Positions 24,854 through 64,000 of a stretch of 64,000 nucleotides of DNA are shown in pieces. The notes below the pieces were generated by a model, which was not told the DNA's origin, ran no database searches, and saw nothing but the letters and a program-made list of their open reading frames with translations. The stretch's first letter is position 1. Each line of letters starts with the position of its first letter. The stretch comes from Wolfiporia cocos (lineage: Eukaryota; Basidiomycota; Agaricomycetes; Polyporales; Phaeolaceae): assembly GCA_029448655.1 (NCBI GenBank), contig JACCLO010000007.1:2046001-2110000 (forward strand), written 5' to 3'. Both the position numbers and the translations under genes were made by a program.

Positions 24854-26883
24854 GTCTGTCCACTGGAATCCTGTCCCCATGACGGTTTTCGTGAGGTCTA
24901 TCAGGGGTCGTGTGTGTGTTGAATAATGATCTATAAACTTCCGGTAGAAATTTGCAAACCCCAAGAAGGATCTGACTTCTTTGAGGTTTTGGGGAGTCGG
25001 CCATTCTTTGATTCCCTTGAGTTTCGCTGGGTCCATCTGGATATTTCCCGGGGTAATGACTAGCCCTAGAAATTCGACCCGGTCGACGCCGAATGCACAT
25101 TTTTCTGTTTTTACGAAGAGGTGGTTGTCTACCAACCTCTGGAGGATTCGCCGTTCTCGCTCCTTGTGTGTTTTCTTGTCTGACGAGAAAATGAGGATAT
25201 CGTCCATGTAGACGAGCACCCATCCTTCAAGGATTTCTTCTTTCAGGATTTCATTCATCATGGCTTGAAAGGTTCCTGGCGCGTTGCACAGTCCAAAGAA
25301 CATGACAGTAGGTTCGTACAACCCGCGGTTTGTTTTGAAGGCCGCTTCCCATTCGTCCCCTGCTTTGATCCGAACGTTATTGTATCCCGCCCTAAGGTCC
25401 ATCTTTGTAAAGATTTTCGCCCCTTTTAGCTTTTCTAGGAGTTCTGATATGAGTGGCAAGGGGTAGACGTTTTTTATCGTCCACTCGTTCAGGTAACGAT
25501 AGTCCTGACATGGTCGTAGGCCGTCGTCCTTTTTTGGAACGAAAAAGAAGGGCGACGCCATCGGGGATTTCGAAGGGACTATGAATCCCTTGGCTAGATT
25601 TTCTTTTAAGAACTCGTCCATTGCTTGTTGTTCTTTCGGGGATAGTGCATAGACTTTGCAATCCTTTGGTACGAAGTCAGGTTTTAATTCGATTGCGTGG
25701 TCCCATGGTCTCGAAGGAGGGAATGCCGTTGCGGCTTCCTTACTGAATACTTTGGCAAAATCTAGTAGGTGTTTTGGGACCATTTCTTCAAGCGTTTTCT
25801 CTGGTTCGGGGGTTTTCTTCGCAAATTCCCGGGACTTTGTCAATGCTTTCCTGACAGCGTTGATGATCTATATTTTTGTTTGGAATTTTCTTTGCATCTC
25901 CCCTTTCTTTCCTATGATCCTAGGGGGATTTTTTGCGAAGCGTCGAATCGCTTTGTATTCTTCGGGAGTGTACAACCGTTGAGCTGTTTCTTCTGGTTGG
26001 TCTGTGGATCCGAATCCCCCTTCCCCCCTTTCTGTTTCGTCTAGGTTTTCAACCTTTACGATGTCGGGGGTAAGGTGTCGTTCGAATATTATCTGGGCTA
26101 TCCACATGCCCGGGATGATCCTATGCGTTTTATCTGAATAGTTGAAGATGATGGCCCCAACGTTTCCTCGGTAATCTGAGTCTATGACTCTGGCTTGGAC
26201 TACCAGTCCATGTTTGAGGGTGTTGCCTGATCGCCCTGCCAACCTTCCATATGATCCCCTTGGGATTTTCATTTTCACTCCTGCGGGGACCAGCTTCCAT
26301 CCTCCCGCAGGGATCTCAGTTTCTTCTGCTGCGTAAAGGTCGTAACATGCCGCTTCCTGGGTTCCTCGGGTTGGGATTTTCCCTCCAGGGGTAATTACCA
26401 TTTCAACCGTATCCATTCTGATCGTGGTTTCTGTTTTTCTTTCTTCTGCCCCTAGTACTGATCGTACATCGACTGTTTGGTCTTTCCAATCGATTGTAGG
26501 GTTTTCGTCTTTCAGCCATCCATACCCTAGAATCATATTCTCTGTGCCGATTGATCCTACTAGGAATCGGACCTTTCGCGTCTTTTGGGTTTTTGGATAT
26601 CGTAGTAATATGGTGGCTTCCCGATCTATTCGTCCATCTTTGTTTTCTGTTCCGTCGACATTCTTGACAATGATTGGGTTCTTCAGGGGTTGTGTGGGTA
26701 CTTTGTATTTTTCCACCACTTTACTGTGGATCAGGTTCGACATTGCTCCTGAGTCGATTAGTGCGTTGCATTTCACGGGTTTTGCCAGCATCATGATTAC
26801 CGGAATGAAGAGGGGTCGATTCTTCTCGAACGAGGTAATTACATGTGCTGCTTTCTCGGAGGGTAAGACCGTGGGCTCCCCTC

Positions 26884-55478: not shown

Positions 55479-57199
55479 TGACACAGACTAGACTGTGGGA
55501 CTCACACTATAACCTTATAAGCGACTTGAAGAGGTTGCTGGAGGTTGGTGAGGAGACTAGTGGGCGCAAGCAGAGATGTTATGTAACTGTGCGAATGCAG
55601 AGAACAAATCTAAGGCTTATCCGCTGAGATAGCCCTACTTATATACATGCTTTGTTTGGTTACCAGTAAGGGAGCCAAACATGAGGTTGGTCTGTGCGCA
55701 GACATAACTAATACAGCTAAGTCGTAAACTACAATAGACCATGTGCGCCGGTAATGGCCGCACCAGTAAGAGCGTTTGTTTGGACCGTAGGTCCATGTTG
55801 TGGAAGTGGCTGTAGCTACGTTAGTAAGCCATGCATGTGATTCTTATATACCGGTATCGGAATATGAGTAATCGTAAGGTCATTGGCATGTGATAACGAG
55901 CGGGCCGCTTATCCAATTGTACTGACATAGCCCGGTATCGGGATATGAGTAAGGCGCGTGACACCGGAGGTTAGTCCGCTGAGTCATTGACGCGTACAAG
56001 TGTGTTATGTACGTGTTGTTATGACAGGTGGACGTATACCGCGTTGTGTACGTGTTGTTTGGTTGCGTGTACGTGTAGACGGGCGCTTAGCAGCGTGAAT
56101 GTCTACAAGGTCGTAGAAATACCAGATAAATAGGTAAAAATACGGGAAAAATAGTGGCATGTCCCAAATCTGTGACATTACCCCCTCTTCAGGTTTCATT
56201 GTCCCTAATGGAACGATTACTTTCCTGTGGAGCCGAACCCACCAGTACCACGCTCGGATTTAATCTTTTCAAAGTAAGATTTTCCATGTAGCGTAATGTG
56301 CGGGTCCTTAGCAACTTCGCAGATGAGCTGAGCAATCTTATCACCGGCCCGAATATCGATAGATATGTCGGAGTGATTCCGGAGAATGATGATTACTTCG
56401 CCTTGATAATCGTGGTCGATAACGCCACCCATTATGTCTATGCCTTTGCGGGCGAGACTAGAGCGGGGGGCGATACGTCCGTAAGTGCCGAAAGGTACCT
56501 GGATCTTCAGTTTGGTGTTGTATTCTGTCTGCCCGTGAGCTGGCAGAACGTCGCCTGTTGCAGTGTACAGGTCAAATCCAACCAAGTCCTTGGTTCCTTT
56601 TTCCGGCATTCGGCCGCCTTCACCGACTACGATTTTCAAGTCCGCGTTTTGATTAATGTCAGCTGACATCCATCCCCCGTCGGGGTGTCTAATCATGCGC
56701 TGCTTAGGATCCTTCGCAAATTCTTCGCGATACTGCAGCCAGTCGTCTGGCCACGTGCATTCGTCGGCTTCCCAGTCGTCGCTGTCAGGGTCGAAGACGT
56801 GAACTGCTTCTTTCCTTCTAGCTGATCGCCTGAGGGGGACATCCTGCATGGGAATGGCGTGTGAAGCCTTGTATTCCTGCAGAATGTCATATGCCGTGTC
56901 GAGGTCGGCTTCGCGTACCCAGGAGTCGTCATTGATACCAAATCCTTTCCATCGGATTCTGTATTCAACTCTTCCTGCGCGGAGACGATGATCTAAGATC
57001 TTCTCAACTTCCCATAATTCTTCGCCGTCGACCATTTCTGGTTGAGGCTCTGGTTTTTTCTGATGCACCGGGTCCTTGTACATGACCAACTTGGAAGCGT
57101 GGAATACTGGGTGATAAGCCCTGTATTGCTCGTCCATGTGTACCCTAAAGGTGACCGGAGATAATTGTTCAATTATCTTAAATGGTCCCAAATAGCGTG
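55479..57199 (-). mobile_element. Element D: 3' part of a chromodomain Gypsy element with C-terminal dUTPase
   Basis: A 3' LTR (55479-56177, 699 bp; TGACACAGACTAGACTG to AATCTGTGACA) is followed on the right by the minus-strand polypurine tract GAGGGGGTAA and the end of pol. Element B's 5' LTR interrupts pol at 57200, with 57195-57199 (GCGTG) as the left target copy. The rest of D lies beyond the window. It has the same terminus and tract type as TRIM1, TRIM2 and element C. Confidence 0.88.
56217..57199 (-). pseudogene. pol of element D: integrase C-end, chromodomain, dUTPase (split by B)
   Basis: Open from the B junction to the stop at 56217. The integrase C-terminal part is FKIIEQLSPVTF and HPVFHASKL. 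A chromodomain follows (WEVEKILDHRL, then YRIRWKGF and DDSWV; about 57030-56900). After an acidic/Trp linker (VFDPDSDDWEADECTWPDDW) comes a complete trimeric dUTPase as the last ~140 residues: VGFDLYTATG, GRIAPRSSLARKG, GGVIDHDYQGEV, GDKIAQLI and RGTGGFGSTG directly before the stop. dUTPase hydrolyses dUTP to dUMP and so limits uracil in cDNA. The upstream half was displaced by B. What remains is free of stops, so D may have been intact until B inserted. Confidence 0.9.
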
Positions 57200-58835
57200 T
57201 GTTACGGTTATTTTGATTTTTCGAACGCTGACGGAACTCACCACTGGGTGAATACGATACAGGGACTTGTTGCACAACCAACCCCCTGGCTACTCGTGAC
57301 TCGTACTGGGCTCATCCCCAGTTGTATTAGCGTAGAGGGCGCGTTTCATCCTTGGCAGATCCAACTCTGCCCTCGTTTCATGTTCATCGTTTATTAGTTG
57401 ACAGATGGCGTTCAACCGCCATCATCATTCCTATCTATCGTCTCAGATATATCACTACATACTATCACAAGACGCGCTGCGGACCCAATGCAACGTGCTT
57501 ATGAGTGGCATAATAGCCACTCCCCCAAAAGGGCTACGATAACAGCTCATGCTGCTATCGAGGGTCCAGCTATATCTGCAGTTCATATTCCCACGCTCGG
57601 CGCCTATTAGACACTCTATGGTGTAGGCCATGTATGCCAGCGCCACGTACGGGTAATGTACCCTAGTTATTGCTCCGTAACGTCTATGATATTATGCTTT
57701 CGCATTATCTGTGACATTACCCCCACTTCAAGGATTAACCGTCTCTGGTTAAGGAGATAACTTAGGCTGCATCAAGCCGCCCCCGGTACTAAGTATCACT
57801 TCTACTATGCTTTGTCATTGTGCCTGGTGAAGGGTACCCCCAATCCCTTATACCATTTGGCTTATGACGTGTGTGCCAACCTCTTGAAGGCCCGACTTAC
57901 ACCCTGGATTTTGGGTGCGGGTTAAGGCTATTTAATAGTAGTTTTTACCACGCAAGCTTTGACCAATCTTATCCCCTGATACCTTACGGTTATAGAGGGG
58001 CCCCATGATACAGGGGGTCACGTGGTGGGTACTTTTCCCTCAGCCGCCAGTGGTTCGGAAGCGCCCCAGGCAGTGGAAATATTTGCCACCACCCAGGTTC
58101 GAACCGGCGACCGGGTGAGCTGTTATTATATCACAAGACGCGCTGCGGACCCAATGCAACGTGCTTATGAGTGGCATAATAGCCACTCCCCCAAAAGGGC
58201 TACGATAACAGCTCATGCTGCTATCGAGGGTCCAGCTATATCTGCAGTTCATATTCCCACGCTCGGCGCCTATTAGACACTCTATGGTGTAGGCCATGTA
58301 TGCCAGCGCCACGTACGGGTAATGTACCCTAGTTATTGCTCCGTAACGTCTATGATATTATGCTTTCGCATTATCTGTGACACATACTTATCAAACGTTT
58401 GGAACTATAGCGTAGATAGTAGCGGTGACATCGGGGACGGACTTGACCCCTAAAACCTAACAAAGTATATAAACTCATGTACTTACTGTCGAGGCTCCTC
58501 AGCTCGACCTTGTTGTATAAACAAGAAGTCTTATACTCGTTCTCAAACGTAGGAAACTACGCTCAGTATTTTTCGCTCGAGCAACCGAACGACCAAGTCC
58601 TCGAAGTGCACACTGACTTCTCGGACTTAGGCGAGTCTTATATTCTATTAGACTCGCACCTGAACAGATTATATCCTCTAACGCGTATTGGATATTATAC
58701 GATCTCCTAGGAACTTCACCTAGGACTTGAAGGCATCTAACGAGCATTTGCCTTGCATACGGCTATACGCCCACGTGCAGAAGAACGATCTATATTCGCG
58801 ACTCGAATATACGAACGGGTATTCGACCCGTAACA
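57200..58835 (+). repeat. Element B 5' LTR, containing TRIM2
   Basis: TGTTACGGTTATTTTG to CGACCCGTAACA. Pieces 57200-57462 and 58388-58835 (after the duplication) join to 711 bp, matching 53916-54626. TRIM2 inserted at CATAC, so transcription of B from this LTR may be altered. Confidence 0.9.
57463..58382 (-). mobile_element. TRIM2: 920-bp LTR mini-element (TSD CATAC)
   Basis: LTRs 57463-57716 and 58129-58382, 254 bp each and identical by eye. The interior is only 412 bp. CATAC is duplicated at 57458-57462 and 58383-58387. On the minus strand the polypurine tract GTGGGGGTAA abuts the 3' LTR, and the interior starts TAATAACAGC after the 5' LTR. No coding capacity. About 30 bases inside the 5' LTR there is a tRNA T-arm/B-box-like GGTTCGAACC (58098-58107). 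It is the youngest insertion in this nest. Confidence 0.93.
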
Positions 58836-58881
58836 GAAGGTCGAGCTTATCACACCCTCACCTATCACGGTGCAAGGGCCC

Positions 58882-60723
58882 ATGATATTTGGACCAGAAT
58901 TCCCAGCACGACTGATTGAACTCTTGCCCGAGGACATTCAGGGAGTCTACAGACTCAACCGATACGAGTGGACTGACACCATTGGAGCCTTCCGTAACAG
59001 CGGAGGAATTGTTGTCATTCCAAGAGAAGATAGGGCATCGAAGTGGGTACAAGTATACCCCTCCGCAGGAACGACCGCTTGGGAAATAACGCGTGAAGCG
59101 TTCGAACGATTCGGAGAAATCCCTCCGATGTCAACCGCGACGTTGACCGAAACCGAAACCATCAACAGAACCTCCGATGCCGATGGAAATACGAATCAGC
59201 CTTCGGGCGCCACAGGAATGGCAGGAATTGAGCGCATCGGAGATGATGGGAGAAATCCTGGAAACTTTACAGGAACAGATAACAGCCAGACCGGAGGACA
59301 GGACCCTCCAGGATTTATATCTGCTTTTGCGCAGAGTGGGATTGGGTCTATGGCTGGAGGAGCAAACCTCTTTGGAAGCCCCCCACAGAACGCACCCGGA
59401 ATGGGTAGCGGAGGAAATCCGTCTTGGACTAGCCCAAGCGGAGGAATGGGAACGACAAACCCAGGAACATGGCCTTCAGGCCTATTTGGACGAACCTCCG
59501 CAGATACAAGCGGAGGAGGACTGGAAGGAAACTTCGGACTTGGAGGAGGGAACGCCCCTCCTCCTGGAGGATTCGGAGGAGGAACCCCCGCGAACCCCGG
59601 AGGAGGAAACCCTGGAGGAAACCCAGGGAACCCCGGAGGAAACCCAGGAAACCCGGGTGGAGGATACCCGGGAGGAGGAGGACCCCCAGGAGGGCCTCCA
59701 CCACCGAATGCGCCGCAGCCTCAACCTCCGGCGCCGAACCCGTACTACCGACCCCCAATGATAAAGATCAATCCCCCAGACGTATTCGACGGGGAACGAT
59801 CCGACATGCAGAACTTCATAAACCAGTGCAATTCCTGGTTTACGATGTACGAAACGTCATTCCAGAACGACGTTCAGAGAGTGATCTTTATCCTCTCTTA
59901 TATTTCGAACAAGGGGAAAATGGGCCAATGGAAACAGAATTATCACCGGGTTTATACGAACCCCGTGACGAAACGATTCTTCCCGCCTAGTCTCGCACAA
60001 TTCGATGCAGACTTTCAGAAGGCCTTCGGAGCCATCGAAGAGGTACAGAAGGCGCGGAAGAAAATCCTGGAAGTAGCCCAGGACAGAAAGGACATCGATG
60101 ATTATATCACCGAATTCAACAACTTGGCCGGAAAGGCCCAGTACGATCGATACAGCGCGGACGGAAACGCGTTGCTCATAACCCTCTTCGAGAAAGGGTT
60201 ACCCGAACACACGACCCGATACATCATCGGTGTACGGCCGCTGCCGGCGACCATTGACGAATGGCAATCCGCTGCCTCGTACTATGAAAATACGTACAAG
60301 ATATTCTTGAAACGGGATAAGCCGTTTATCAAAAAGAAGGCCTGGCAAGCCTCGAACCAGAATAACGGACGCACTAGTGCTCCTCAGACGACCGCACCAA
60401 AAGATCCGAACGCAATGGATGTAGATCGAATGACCACCCAGGAAAGAGACGATCACATCAAGAAGGGAAAATGCTTCACCTGTCATCAGCCAGGACATAT
60501 GTCGCGAGACTGCCCGAAGAAGCCGAGGAAGCCAGCCCGCCCTAGGCGGACTACTCGAAAGACCGAAGAAGAAGAAGCCGAGCAAGAAGCTCGCATCGAA
60601 GAAGTCTCCGAGGAAGAGACTGAATACATCACCGCTAACAGAGCGGTCACAGCAATTAGGGCTCTGAAAGCCAAGAACCCCGAGCTCCTAGCACGGCTAG
60701 TAGAAGAACAGGATTTTGCCTAG
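58882..60723 (+). CDS. gag of element B
   Basis: 613 residues from ATG at 58882; the frame also extends to an upstream GTG, but ATG matches A's start. The N-terminal part (MIFGPEFPARLIELLPEDIQ) is followed by a Gly/Pro/Asn-rich linker (about residues 100-290). The capsid-like core follows (INPPDVFDGERSDMQNFINQ through PLPATIDEWQSAASYYENTY). A CCHC knuckle CFTCHQPGHMSRDC begins at residue 531, then comes a Lys/Arg patch and an acidic end. Gag assembles particles and binds the RNA. The stop is TAG at 60721-60723. Pol overlaps in the -1 frame. Within the linker a second frame (59177-59761) is fully open. Confidence 0.92.
   Translation: MIFGPEFPARLIELLPEDIQGVYRLNRYEWTDTIGAFRNSGGIVVIPREDRASKWVQVYPSAGTTAWEITREAFERFGEIPPMSTATLTETETINRTSDADGNTNQPSGATGMAGIERIGDDGRNPGNFTGTDNSQTGGQDPPGFISAFAQSGIGSMAGGANLFGSPPQNAPGMGSGGNPSWTSPSGGMGTTNPGTWPSGLFGRTSADTSGGGLEGNFGLGGGNAPPPGGFGGGTPANPGGGNPGGNPGNPGGNPGNPGGGYPGGGGPPGGPPPPNAPQPQPPAPNPYYRPPMIKINPPDVFDGERSDMQNFINQCNSWFTMYETSFQNDVQRVIFILSYISNKGKMGQWKQNYHRVYTNPVTKRFFPPSLAQFDADFQKAFGAIEEVQKARKKILEVAQDRKDIDDYITEFNNLAGKAQYDRYSADGNALLITLFEKGLPEHTTRYIIGVRPLPATIDEWQSAASYYENTYKIFLKRDKPFIKKKAWQASNQNNGRTSAPQTTAPKDPNAMDVDRMTTQERDDHIKKGKCFTCHQPGHMSRDCPKKPRKPARPRRTTRKTEEEEAEQEARIEEVSEEETEYITANRAVTAIRALKAKNPELLARLVEEQDFA
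60660..60723 (+). promoter_or_regulatory. gag-pol overlap (-1 frame)
   Basis: The pol frame is open from 60660 and gag ends at 60723. The only homopolymer is GATTTTGCC just before the gag stop. The recoding mechanism is not evident from the sequence. Confidence 0.5.
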
Positions 60724-63700
60724 GAGGGAAGCCCACGGTCTTACCCTCCGAGAAAGCAGCGCATGTAATTACCTCGTTCGAGAAGAATCGATCCCTCTTC
60801 ATCCCGGTAATCATGACGCTGGCAAAACCCGTGAAGTGCAATGCACTAATCGACTCAGGAGCAATGTCGAACCTGATCCACAGCAGAGTGGTAGAAAAAT
60901 ACAAGGTGCCCACGCAACCCTTGAAGAACCCGATCATCGTCAAAAATGTTGACGGAACAGAAAACAAAGATGGGCGAATAGACCGAGAAGCTACCATACT
61001 ACTACGATATCCGAAGACCCAGAAAACGCGAAAAGTCCGATTCCTCGTAGGATCAATCGGAACAGAAAATATGATTCTAGGGTATGGATGGCTAAAAGAC
61101 GAAAACCCCACAATCGACTGGAAGGACCAAACAGTCGATGTACGATCGATACTAGGGGCAGAAGAAAAGAAACAGGAAGCCACAATCCGAATGGATACGG
61201 TGGAGATGGTAGTTGCCCTGGAAGGAAAAATTCCAACAAGGGGGACCCAAGAAGCTGCGGGATATGACCTTTACGCCGCAGAAGAAACCGAGATCCCCGC
61301 CGGAGGATGGAAACTCGTCTCCACAGGAGTAAAAATGAAGATCCCGAAGGGATCGTATGGAAGGCTGGCCGGACGATCAGGCAACACCCTCAGACACGGA
61401 TTGGTAGTACAAGCCGGAATCATAGATTCAGACTACCGAGGAGACGTCGGTGCCATCGTCTTTAACCACTCAGACAAGGCGCATAGAATTATCCCGGGCA
61501 TGCGAATAGCCCAGATAATTTTCGAACGACACCTCACCCCTGACATCTTGAAGGTCGAAGATCTAGATGAAACAGAACGAGGGGAGAAAGGGTTTGGATC
61601 CACAGACCAGCCAGAAGAAACAGCGCAGCGGCTCTATACTCCCGAAGAATACGAAGCGATCCGACGCTTCGCAAAAGATAACCCTAGGATCATAGGAAAG
61701 AAAGGGGAGATGCAAAAGAAGTTCCGAACAAAGATACAAATCATCAACGCTGTCAGGAAAGCGCTGACGAAATCTCAGGAATTCGCACAAAAAACCCCCG
61801 AACCAGAACGAACAATTGAAGAGATGGTCCCGAAACACCTACTGGACTTCGCCAAGGTGTTCAGTAAGGAGTCCGCAGCAGCGTTCCCCCCGTCGAGACC
61901 ATGGGACCACGCAATCGAATTAAAACCCGATTTCGTGCCGAAAGACTGCAAAGTCTATGCACTCTCGCCTAAAGAGCAACAGGCGTTGGACGAATTCCTA
62001 AAAGAAAACTTGGCCAAGGGATTCATAGTCCCTTCAAAATCCCCGATGGCGTCACCATTCTTTTTCGTCCCAAAGAAAGACAGCGGCCTACGACCCTGTC
62101 AAGATTATCGATATCTGAACGAAGGGACGATAAAGAACGTCTATCCCTTACCACTGATCTCGGAGCTCCTGGAAAAGCTAAAAGGAGCAAAGATCTTCAC
62201 AAAAATGGACCTTAGAGCGGGATACAACAACGTGCGAATCAAAAAGGGAGACGAATGGAAGGCGGCCTTCAAAACAAACCGAGGGTTGTACGAGCCCACG
62301 GTCATGTTTTTCGGATTATGCAACGCACCCGGGACCTTTCAGGCAATGATGAACGAAATCCTGAAAGAAGAAATCCTCGAAGGATGGGTGCTTGTTTATA
62401 TGGACGACATCCTCATTTTCTCAGAAGACGAGAAAATACACAAGGAACGGGAGCGGCGGATCCTTCAGAAACTGGTGGATAATCATCTCTTTGTGAAACC
62501 CGAGAAATGCGCTTTCGGTGTCGACAGAGTTGAATTCCTGGGACTAGTCATCACCCCAGGAAATATCCAGATGGACCCAGCGAAACTCAATGGGATTAAA
62601 GAGTGGCCGACTCCCCGAAATCTCAAAGAAGTCAGATCCTTCCTAGGATTTGCAAACTTCTATCGGAAATTTATCGATCACTACTCTACGCACGCCCGAC
62701 CCTTGGTAGACCTCACAAAAACGGTCACAGGAACAGGATTCCAATGGACGGAGAAAGAACAGACGGCATTCGAATTCATGAAGAAAGCATTCACAACGGC
62801 GCCCGCACTAGGAACACCGGACAAGGAGAAACCATTCATCCTCGAAACGGATGCATCTCAGTTCGCCACAGGAGCGGTACTGAAACAGATAGATGAAACA
62901 GGGAGCGAACGGCCGGTGGGATATCTCTCACAATCCCTGACACCAACAGAACGGAATTACGAAATCTACGATCGCGAACTACTCGGAATAGTCCGAGCAT
63001 TAGAAGAATGGCGGCACCTATTGGAAGGAGCACCGCATCGGATCTTGATCCGAAGCGATCATCAAAACCTGACGTACTGGAGAAGCGCACAGCGTCTAAA
63101 TCGGCGGCAAGCGAGATGGCATCTATTCCTTTCGCAATTCGACCTGAAATTACAGCACGTCCCCGGAAGGAAACTAGTCATGGCCGACACGCTTTCCAGG
63201 TTGTATCACCTGGACGAAAGCAACGAAGACAACGAGGGAATCACCATGATTCCAGACGAACTCGTCGTCCACGCAATCCAGATCCCGATCATTGATCGAA
63301 TCAAGAGTGCTAACGATCGAGATGAATCTGCGGAACAGGCGATCCGTGCCCTAGGGGGCACAGGCGAATTCCCCGCTAGAACCACCGCGGATGAATGGCA
63401 ACAAACGGATGGTATACTGCTCTACAGAGGCAGGATGTATGTGCCGAGGGACGAGGGCCTTCGACGGGACGTCATCTCAAAATACCACGACACGATCCCG
63501 GCCGGACACCCTGGAATCTGGGGCACAACAGTACAGGTTACGACTCACTTTTGGTGGCCTGACATGAGAACAATGATAGCGGAATATGTCCGGGGCTGTG
63601 CAATCTGTCAACAGATGAAACCTGATAGGAATCCGCTAAAACCCCCTTTGCAACCAATACCGACACGGGAAGACGCCCTCCCCTTCTCACAGTGCTCAGT

Positions 63701-64000
63701 CGATTTTGTCACCGACCTGCCAAGAGTCGGAAAGTATGACTCCATGATGGTGATTGTCGACCATGGCCTATCCAAGGCCATCTCTCTCACCCCATGCGAC
63801 AAGACAATTACGAGCGAAGGGGCCGCAGAAATATTCCATCGAAAAATATATTCGCAATACGGCATTCCCCGAAAGATTATTTCAGACAGGGGACCGCAGT
63901 TTGCATCGAAGCTTTTCAAGGAATTATGCAAGCTGCAGGGAACGGAATCAGCAATGAGCACGGCGTACCATCCACAGACCGACGGACAGACAGAAAGGAT
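60660..64000 (+). CDS. pol of element B: PR-dUTPase-RT-RNaseH-IN (runs off window)
   Basis: This frame is -1 relative to gag. It opens after a TAG at 60657, overlaps gag by about 60 bases, and has its first ATG at 60813. It has no stop to 64000 (more than 1060 codons from that ATG). Residues below count from that ATG. The aspartic protease has ALIDSGAMSN (about 13-22). The dUTPase motifs are AGYDLYAAEE (149), GRLAGRSGN, GIIDSDYRGDVG, RIAQIIFER and GEKGFGSTD, the last a weaker form of the usual glycine-rich motif 5. The RT has YMDD at 529-532 and [11 protein letters not shown] before it. RNase H shows LETDAS, NYEIYDRELLG and IRSDHQN. The integrase HHCC finger (GHPGIW...CAICQQMK) is followed by VDFVTD and IISDRGPQ; the Glu and the chromodomain are at or past the edge. 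Expression presumably needs -1 frameshifting or reinitiation. No canonical X XXY YYZ heptamer was seen in the overlap. Confidence 0.93.

What the first reader, a model, noticed from the sequence alone, without database searches (positions are those of the whole stretch)
56217..62000. Two Gypsy lineages in one locus carry dUTPase at different positions in pol
Elements A and B encode a trimeric dUTPase between protease and RT. Element D encodes one at the extreme C-terminus, after the chromodomain, and ends on the glycine-rich motif 5. The motif texts also differ (GRLAGRSGN against GRIAPRSSLARKG), so these look like separate captures or a domain relocation. From memory, dUTPase-containing Metaviridae have been described in Phanerochaete chrysosporium; I cannot say whether the C-terminal arrangement has. 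Selection for low dUTP during reverse transcription in non-dividing hyphae would be a reason for repeated capture.
Basis: partly seen in the sequence, partly recalled or inferred. Interest (0 to 1): 0.78.

Follow-up and report, generated by a model that had tools for sequence, protein, structure and literature searches.

The report
dUTPase at three places in retrotransposons
This fungal genome carries several families of retrotransposons with a built-in nucleotide-cleaning enzyme (dUTPase) placed at one of three spots in their polyprotein, an arrangement already reported in another wood-rot fungus, so it is mostly a confirmation of a known pattern with a few new details.

Summary
A and B carry a dUTPase between protease (PR) and reverse transcriptase (RT). 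D carries one at the end of Pol, after the chromodomain, in one frame with integrase; at least 112 D-type matches exist here. The window's D is a dead copy: B is inserted in it at 57199/57200. The same three positions were published for Postia placenta in 2010 (PMC2864245), so the arrangement is not new.

Position follows RT lineage in all 14 carriers placed. The history is unsettled. One RT clade of carriers is rejected (p 7e-6), largely because complete non-carriers sit among D's relatives; but one old gain with losses only in D's clade is not rejected (p 0.14). The dUTPase trees lean D towards E/F, not B (support 96/89, 89/68), yet one C-terminal dUTPase clade is not rejected (p 0.14, 0.35). 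So relocation and separate capture both stay open; separate gains are favoured, not shown. Two relatives of D end in decayed, apparently inactive dUTPases.

The parts
56217..57199 (-). Element D, 3' part of pol (SH3/GPY-type integrase end, chromodomain, linker, dUTPase, stop 56217-56219)
   Evidence: D homology to L051 and L023 ends at 57199
56223..56612 (-). D dUTPase domain, last 130 residues of Pol
   Evidence: PF00692, E 2.9e-32; model pLDDT 88 matches solved dUTPases
56865..57014 (-). D chromodomain
   Evidence: PF00385, E 1.8e-11
55479..56177 (-). D 3' LTR (approximate limits)
   Evidence: repeat matches; 541 bases of it have 40 scored matches in the genome (of 1068 candidates), nine pairs of them 9.2-9.3 kb apart by hand count
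57200..58838 (+). B 5' LTR, beginning TGTTACGG directly at the break in D, with about 914 extra bases (57468-58381) inside
   Evidence: blastn against L057 and window copies; sequence
58834..60723 (+). B gag frame with CCHC zinc knuckle
   Evidence: Retrotrans_gag, zf-CCHC
60660..63998 (+). B pol frame: PR, dUTPase, RT, RNaseH, integrase (runs off the window)
61224..61604 (+). B dUTPase domain between PR and RT
   Evidence: PF00692, E 3.9e-37
26003..26380 (-). A dUTPase domain, after PR
   Evidence: PF00692, E 2.2e-34
25058..25540 (-). A reverse transcriptase
   Evidence: RVT_1, E 1.4e-29

Best explanation
These are dUTPase-carrying chromoviruses (Ty3/Gypsy LTR retrotransposons with a chromodomain) of a basidiomycete, a known kind. 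Three pol lineages each hold a dUTPase at their own place: before PR (E, F), between PR and RT (A, B, G), and at the end of Pol after the chromodomain (D). Shown: the coding order, one open frame from PR to dUTPase in D, a dUTPase fold in D, all five motifs recognisable in D, B, E, F and G, and position that follows RT lineage in the 14 carriers placed. Inferred: Pol is cut by PR, the dUTPase trimerises (in D possibly while still joined to integrase, its free C-terminal motif 5 reaching the neighbouring subunit), and removes dUTP near the reverse transcriptase so that uracil stays out of the new DNA. Also inferred, and only favoured: separate gains in the three lineages followed by losses in the D lineage, with P0270 probably a fresh capture of a host gene. 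Movement of the domain between the E/F and D places, or one old gain with moves and losses, is not excluded.
For: Domain order by Pfam in pieces and in relatives. RT tree of 73 rows: A/B/G/P0270 one clade 99/96; E/F/P0241/P0242 inside a 19-row clade 100/99; D/P0122/P0126/P0127/P0128/P0133 inside a 28-row clade 100/96. On 38 rows (14 carriers, 17 D-clade non-carriers complete at the C-terminal end, 7 outside rows covering all three places) AU rejects one clade for all 14 carriers (p 6.9e-6), for C-terminal plus pre-PR carriers (8e-45) and for the six C-terminal carriers alone (1e-4). P0270 dUTPase with the host gene 99/96. A one-residue gap after motif 2 is shared by D, E, F, P0241, P0122, P0126, P0127, P0133 and Wolfiporia P0001 (also Pandoravirus P0037 and the unnamed P0022), and absent from A, B, G, P0270, P0242, the host gene and the named cellular rows shown. 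Selection: 29 D copies hold 26 DNA versions of the dUTPase, 39 variable sites all at third codon positions, one protein; B 15 copies pN/pS 0.073.
Against: Several origins are not forced. On RT, pre-PR plus PR-RT carriers as one clade is not rejected (p 0.129), nor is one side holding both of these and the whole D clade (p 0.137); the rejections come mostly from non-carriers among D's relatives, i.e. they may be losses. The dUTPase alignments (135 columns) leave one clade of all transposon dUTPases at p 0.053 (present unsupported, 35/82). Even P0270 grouped with A/B/G (p 0.18) and P0242 with E/F/P0241 (p 0.186) are not rejected. Absence of dUTPase could not be judged in the 15 non-carriers of the E/F clade, whose proteins are too short at the N terminus. 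The D and B copies used for selection were chosen by protein or domain score, which favours unchanged proteins. No activity, expression or processing was tested. P0127 and P0128 keep a dUTPase-like domain without motif 5 and most active-site residues.
Confidence: 0.7

Rival explanations
1. Relocation: the C-terminal dUTPase of D came from a pre-PR (E/F type) element by recombination between retrotransposons, not from a cellular gene.
For: D and Wolfiporia dUTPases group with E/F at 96/89 and with E/F/P0241 at 89/68; shared one-residue gap; D and E/F types are both multi-copy in this genome.
Against: Support is moderate and falls with added rows; P0122, P0126 and P0133 share the same gap without grouping there; D with the other C-terminal dUTPases is not rejected (p 0.138, 0.352).
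Confidence: 0.3
2. One ancient gain in a common ancestor of the three lineages, then movement of the domain within pol and losses in the D clade.
For: Not rejected on RT when the whole D clade is held with both other carrier sets (p 0.137). 17 non-carriers of the D clade have a chromodomain and end 8-40 aa after it, so absence at that place is real in the predicted proteins. One clade of all transposon dUTPases is not firmly rejected (p 0.053).
Against: Needs 12 losses on the 38-row tree rooted at the midpoint, against 7 gains without loss or 3 gains with 6 losses, plus two moves within pol; P0270's dUTPase groups with the host gene (99/96), though its place with A/B/G is not rejected (p 0.18).
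Confidence: 0.22
3. D's dUTPase is a host gene that happens to abut an element.
For: None found beyond the general similarity to cellular dUTPases.
Against: Same frame as integrase and chromodomain in L051 and in frames of the same length in 81 of 112 scored matches by hand count, about 45-50 bases before the 3' LTR; a separate, intron-split dUTPase gene lies at C45:2395300-2397300.
Confidence: 0.01

Closest known systems
PosPlaTy3-4 of Postia placenta (chromovirus; Novikova et al. 2010, PMC2864245)
   Same: dUTPase at the carboxyl terminus of Pol (statement read), as in D
PosPlaTy3-5 and PosPlaTy3-3 of Postia placenta (same paper)
   Same: dUTPase between PR and RT (as A, B, G) and at the amino terminus of Pol (as E, F)
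   Different: Sequences not compared
dUTPase-containing Metaviridae of Phanerochaete chrysosporium (Novikova and Blinov 2008) and Tmt1 of Tuber
   Same: Fungal LTR retrotransposons with dUTPase; cited in PMC2864245, papers themselves not read
   Different: Positions not seen by me
Retroviral dUTPases: betaretroviruses (before PR), non-primate lentiviruses (in Pol), MuERV-L (after IN); Jern et al. 2005, PMC1224870
   Same: Three positions ascribed to three acquisitions (passages read); two of the places are the same as in the fungal elements
   Different: Retroviruses; the third retroviral place lies inside Pol in non-primate lentiviruses, whereas the fungal one lies between PR and RT
Juno, Vesta and TelKA elements of bdelloid rotifers (PMC5408684)
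   Same: dUTPase between PR and RT (passages)
   Different: No chromodomain

Membership tests
Chromovirus (chromodomain Ty3/Gypsy) | Pol order PR-RT-RNaseH-integrase | tested here: met
   L051 in pieces
Chromovirus (chromodomain Ty3/Gypsy) | Chromodomain after the integrase end | tested here: met
   D 44 bits and B copy L057 56 bits, cut-off 25.1. E only 18 bits, below the cut-off, and none in F at E 0.01, so the feature is unsure in E and not found in F
Chromovirus (chromodomain Ty3/Gypsy) | Long terminal repeats flanking the element | tested here: met
   Nine D LTR pairs 9.2-9.3 kb apart by hand count; a 300-base stretch identical 7298 apart in E loci L053 and L054; B LTR. None found in the stretch held for F locus L056
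Trimeric dUTPase (PF00692) | Five motifs including the motif-3 aspartate and C-terminal motif 5 | tested here: met
   D, B, E, F, G in alignments; not met in P0127 and P0128. Motif limits are recalled, not from a call
Trimeric dUTPase (PF00692) | Fold | tested here: met
   D model pLDDT 88.4, best match 4ooq_A E 8e-12; the last residues, motif 5, are modelled with low confidence
Trimeric dUTPase (PF00692) | Homotrimer and dUTP hydrolysis | not testable with these tools
   No biochemical data
PosPlaTy3-4 | Sequence identity or same clade | not testable with these tools

The most novel reading that the evidence does not exclude
The place is a stable property of each pol lineage while its content turns over: enzymes are lost, refilled from different sources (P0270 from a fungal host gene; P0242, without the gap, beside gapped P0241 at the same place), and in the C-terminal lineage sometimes kept as an apparently dead dUTPase fold (P0128, a cluster of 43 member sequences; P0127). 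If real, the C-terminal domain has a second, non-catalytic job, for example holding integrase-chromodomain units together as a trimer.
Probability: 0.12. Interest if true: 0.6.

Novelty: new member of a known kind. Interest (0 to 1): 0.32.

Why it matters
It shows, in one genome and with trees, that the dUTPase position is a lineage marker in these fungal chromoviruses, and it sets out which histories the data still allow. The pattern parallels the three retroviral positions. The decayed C-terminal dUTPases make a testable question of whether the domain has a role apart from catalysis.

Tried and rejected
The first dUTPase tree (41 rows) gave strong AU rejections, but I had left the Wolfiporia row, which belongs with D, outside the tested groups, so I discard those tests; two of its tests did not finish. 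For one search, 16 of 41 rows were dropped (25 kept) and for, 20 of 44 (24 kept): P0127 and P0128 as decayed long branches, two near-copies, four arthropod or nematode rows, and 12 unnamed standalone dUTPases, some of which may be element fragments.

In one search I had labelled P0270 as pre-PR; one search shows PR-dUT-RT, and searches use the corrected label. On the 73-row RT tree AU also rejected all carriers as one clade (1.5e-6), C-terminal plus pre-PR (6.9e-6), C-terminal plus PR-RT (1.3e-8) and the C-terminal carriers alone (0.0023); two other tests there did not finish. That check also brought the two non-rejections (0.129, 0.137) that weaken 'at least three acquisitions', which I had first written; I raised the single-gain rival from 0.12 to 0.22 and lowered the best explanation from 0.72 to 0.70.

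The first substitution counts upstream of the D dUTPase and in B PR/RT were spoiled by frameshifted copies; keep only copies in register. The D integrase-core segment still gives an odd pS of 0.28 (26 of 29 copies), unexplained. Linker similarity between chromodomain and dUTPase was found among P0122, P0127 and P0128 (0 of 2000 shuffles each), not for D, P0126 or P0133. P0124's short tail resembles P0128's (2 of 2000), mostly in residues common to the clade, so I do not use it as proof of loss. A sample of D copies chosen by LTR, to avoid the selection bias, could not be fetched.
Full report
What is there. The window carries several Ty3/Gypsy elements. D (56217-57199, minus strand) is the 3' end of a pol frame: SH3-type integrase end, chromodomain, a linker of about 82 residues and a dUTPase ending on motif 5 just before the stop. 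B (57200 to beyond 63998, plus) has gag, then PR-dUTPase-RT-RNaseH-integrase. A (minus) has PR-dUTPase and RT in two successive frames. B's LTR begins where D homology stops, so B is inserted into D in the opposite orientation. A second D LTR on the same strand lies 18.7 kb from D's 3' LTR, against 9.2-9.3 kb in nine other pairs and 10.0 kb in one (hand count); that fits one element inside the other, but I did not read the far junction. The window's D is a broken copy; statements about the full order come from other copies.

The D family. The D segment has 112 scored matches in the genome, of 3606 candidates; by hand count 81 of the 112 lie in frames of 1528-1531 aa. In L051 the pieces read PR, RT, RNaseH, H2C2, rve, SH3, chromodomain, dUTPase. 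The dUTPase model (pLDDT 88.4, low in the last residues) matches solved dUTPases, best 4ooq_A at E 8e-12.

A third position. PF00692 has 150 scored matches here, of 1428 candidates. Besides B-like copies these include E (L053, frame 2347 aa) and F (L056, frame 2256 aa), each with the dUTPase before PR. A pattern search found G, a sister of B with PR-dUTPase-RT, and a separate dUTPase gene that reads as intron-split and is taken as the host's own.

RT trees. The 73-row tree used 6 window or genome rows and 67 of the 228 pol-type hits held (P0121-P0348). It gives three carrier groups: A/B/G/P0270 (99/96, 4 of 4 rows), E/F/P0241/P0242 (4 of 19 rows) and D/P0122/P0126/P0127/P0128/P0133 (6 of 28 rows). 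Position follows lineage in these 14 carriers. Whether the others truly lack the domain was checked: 17 of 22 non-carriers in the D clade have a chromodomain and end 8-40 residues after it; the other 5 are incomplete; none of 15 in the E/F clade reaches far enough before RT. A second tree of 38 rows keeps the 14 carriers, those 17, and 7 outside rows that cover all three places. There one clade of all carriers is rejected (6.9e-6), as are C-terminal plus pre-PR carriers (8e-45) and the six C-terminal carriers alone (1e-4). Pre-PR plus PR-RT carriers are not rejected as one clade (0.129), nor is a side holding both and the whole D clade (0.137). Counts on this tree, rooted at the midpoint: 7 gains without loss, 3 gains with 6 losses, or 1 gain with 12 losses. 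So RT shows gains or losses within the D clade, but does not by itself prove separate gains in the three lineages; that reading rests on the three different places and, weakly, on the dUTPase trees.

dUTPase trees. The domain is short. B/A/G is solid (100/100). P0270 joins the host gene (99/96), a probable capture from a basidiomycete, although P0270 with A/B/G is not rejected (0.18). D with Wolfiporia joins E/F (96/89), or E/F/P0241 (89/68). One C-terminal clade is not rejected (0.138, 0.352), D with B/G (0.064) and E/F with B/G (0.090) are borderline, and all transposon dUTPases as one clade are borderline (0.053). A one-residue gap after motif 2 separates D, E, F, P0241 and the C-terminal relatives P0122, P0126, P0127, P0133 (also Pandoravirus P0037 and the unnamed P0022) from B, A, G, P0270, P0242 and the named cellular enzymes. 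It suggests two dUTPase types in these elements, but short gaps can recur.

Selection. In 29 D copies the dUTPase has 26 DNA versions, 39 variable sites, all third codon positions, and one protein. Mean pairwise synonymous difference is 0.096, against 0.039 overall in part of the LTR, where 325 of 406 pairs were used and pairs with 80 or more differences in 400 bases dropped. The neighbouring chromodomain and RNaseH segments give pN/pS 0.016 (29 copies) and 0.024 (25 of 29). B has pN/pS 0.073 (15 copies), near its RT value of 0.052 (12 of 15); G 0.141 (7 of 9). The D and B sets were chosen by protein or domain score, so the constraint is overstated.

Decay. P0127 and P0128, in the D clade, carry a C-terminal dUTPase-like domain matching only positions 4-109 and 11-109 of 129, without motif 5, with residues of motifs 1-3 changed; P0128 stands for 43 member sequences. 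The linker before the domain is alike in P0122, P0127 and P0128, so these probably share one junction. Whether the decayed domain is still used is unknown.

Known or new. Novikova et al. 2010 (PMC2864245; passages found by search, not the whole text or the supplements) state that in Postia placenta the dUTPase lies at the amino terminus (PosPlaTy3-3), the carboxyl terminus of Pol (PosPlaTy3-4) or between PR and RT (PosPlaTy3-5), that elements seem to acquire it independently, and give the non-dividing-cell argument. Jern et al. 2005 (PMC1224870, passages) describe three retroviral acquisitions at three places, the third after integrase in MuERV-L. Passages of PMC5408684, PMC2774666 and PMC4531489 were also seen. 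Library searches listed no later survey of dUTPase position in fungal elements, judged by titles and the starts of abstracts; the library is open-access only, and several listed papers were not opened. The D arrangement is therefore a new member of a known kind, and the host may even be the same or a near species: D's best dUTPase hit is a partial protein of Wolfiporia cocos, 75% identical over 78% of the domain. I could not name the host.

Noticed in passing
P0127, P0128 (relatives of D found): C-terminal dUTPase domains that lack motif 5 and most active-site residues but still end the open frame; P0128 represents 43 member sequences.
   Followed up: partly
L057:8004-9152 (B copy): B Pol continues about 380 residues past the chromodomain, up to the LTR, with no other Pfam match.
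   Followed up: partly
57463-57716 and 58129-58382: An exact 254-base direct repeat inside about 914 extra bases in B's 5' LTR.
   Followed up: no
L064 (C3:1382374): A degenerate dUTPase remnant with stops that looks unlike the other families by eye.
   Followed up: no
L022-L050: D copies differ by about 10% at synonymous sites while encoding one identical dUTPase, with a continuous spread of differences (0-17 per pair) rather than a few subfamilies.
   Followed up: partly
P0270: Its dUTPase resembles the fungal host gene, including the run GIVFVLL, suggesting a capture from a host.
   Followed up: partly
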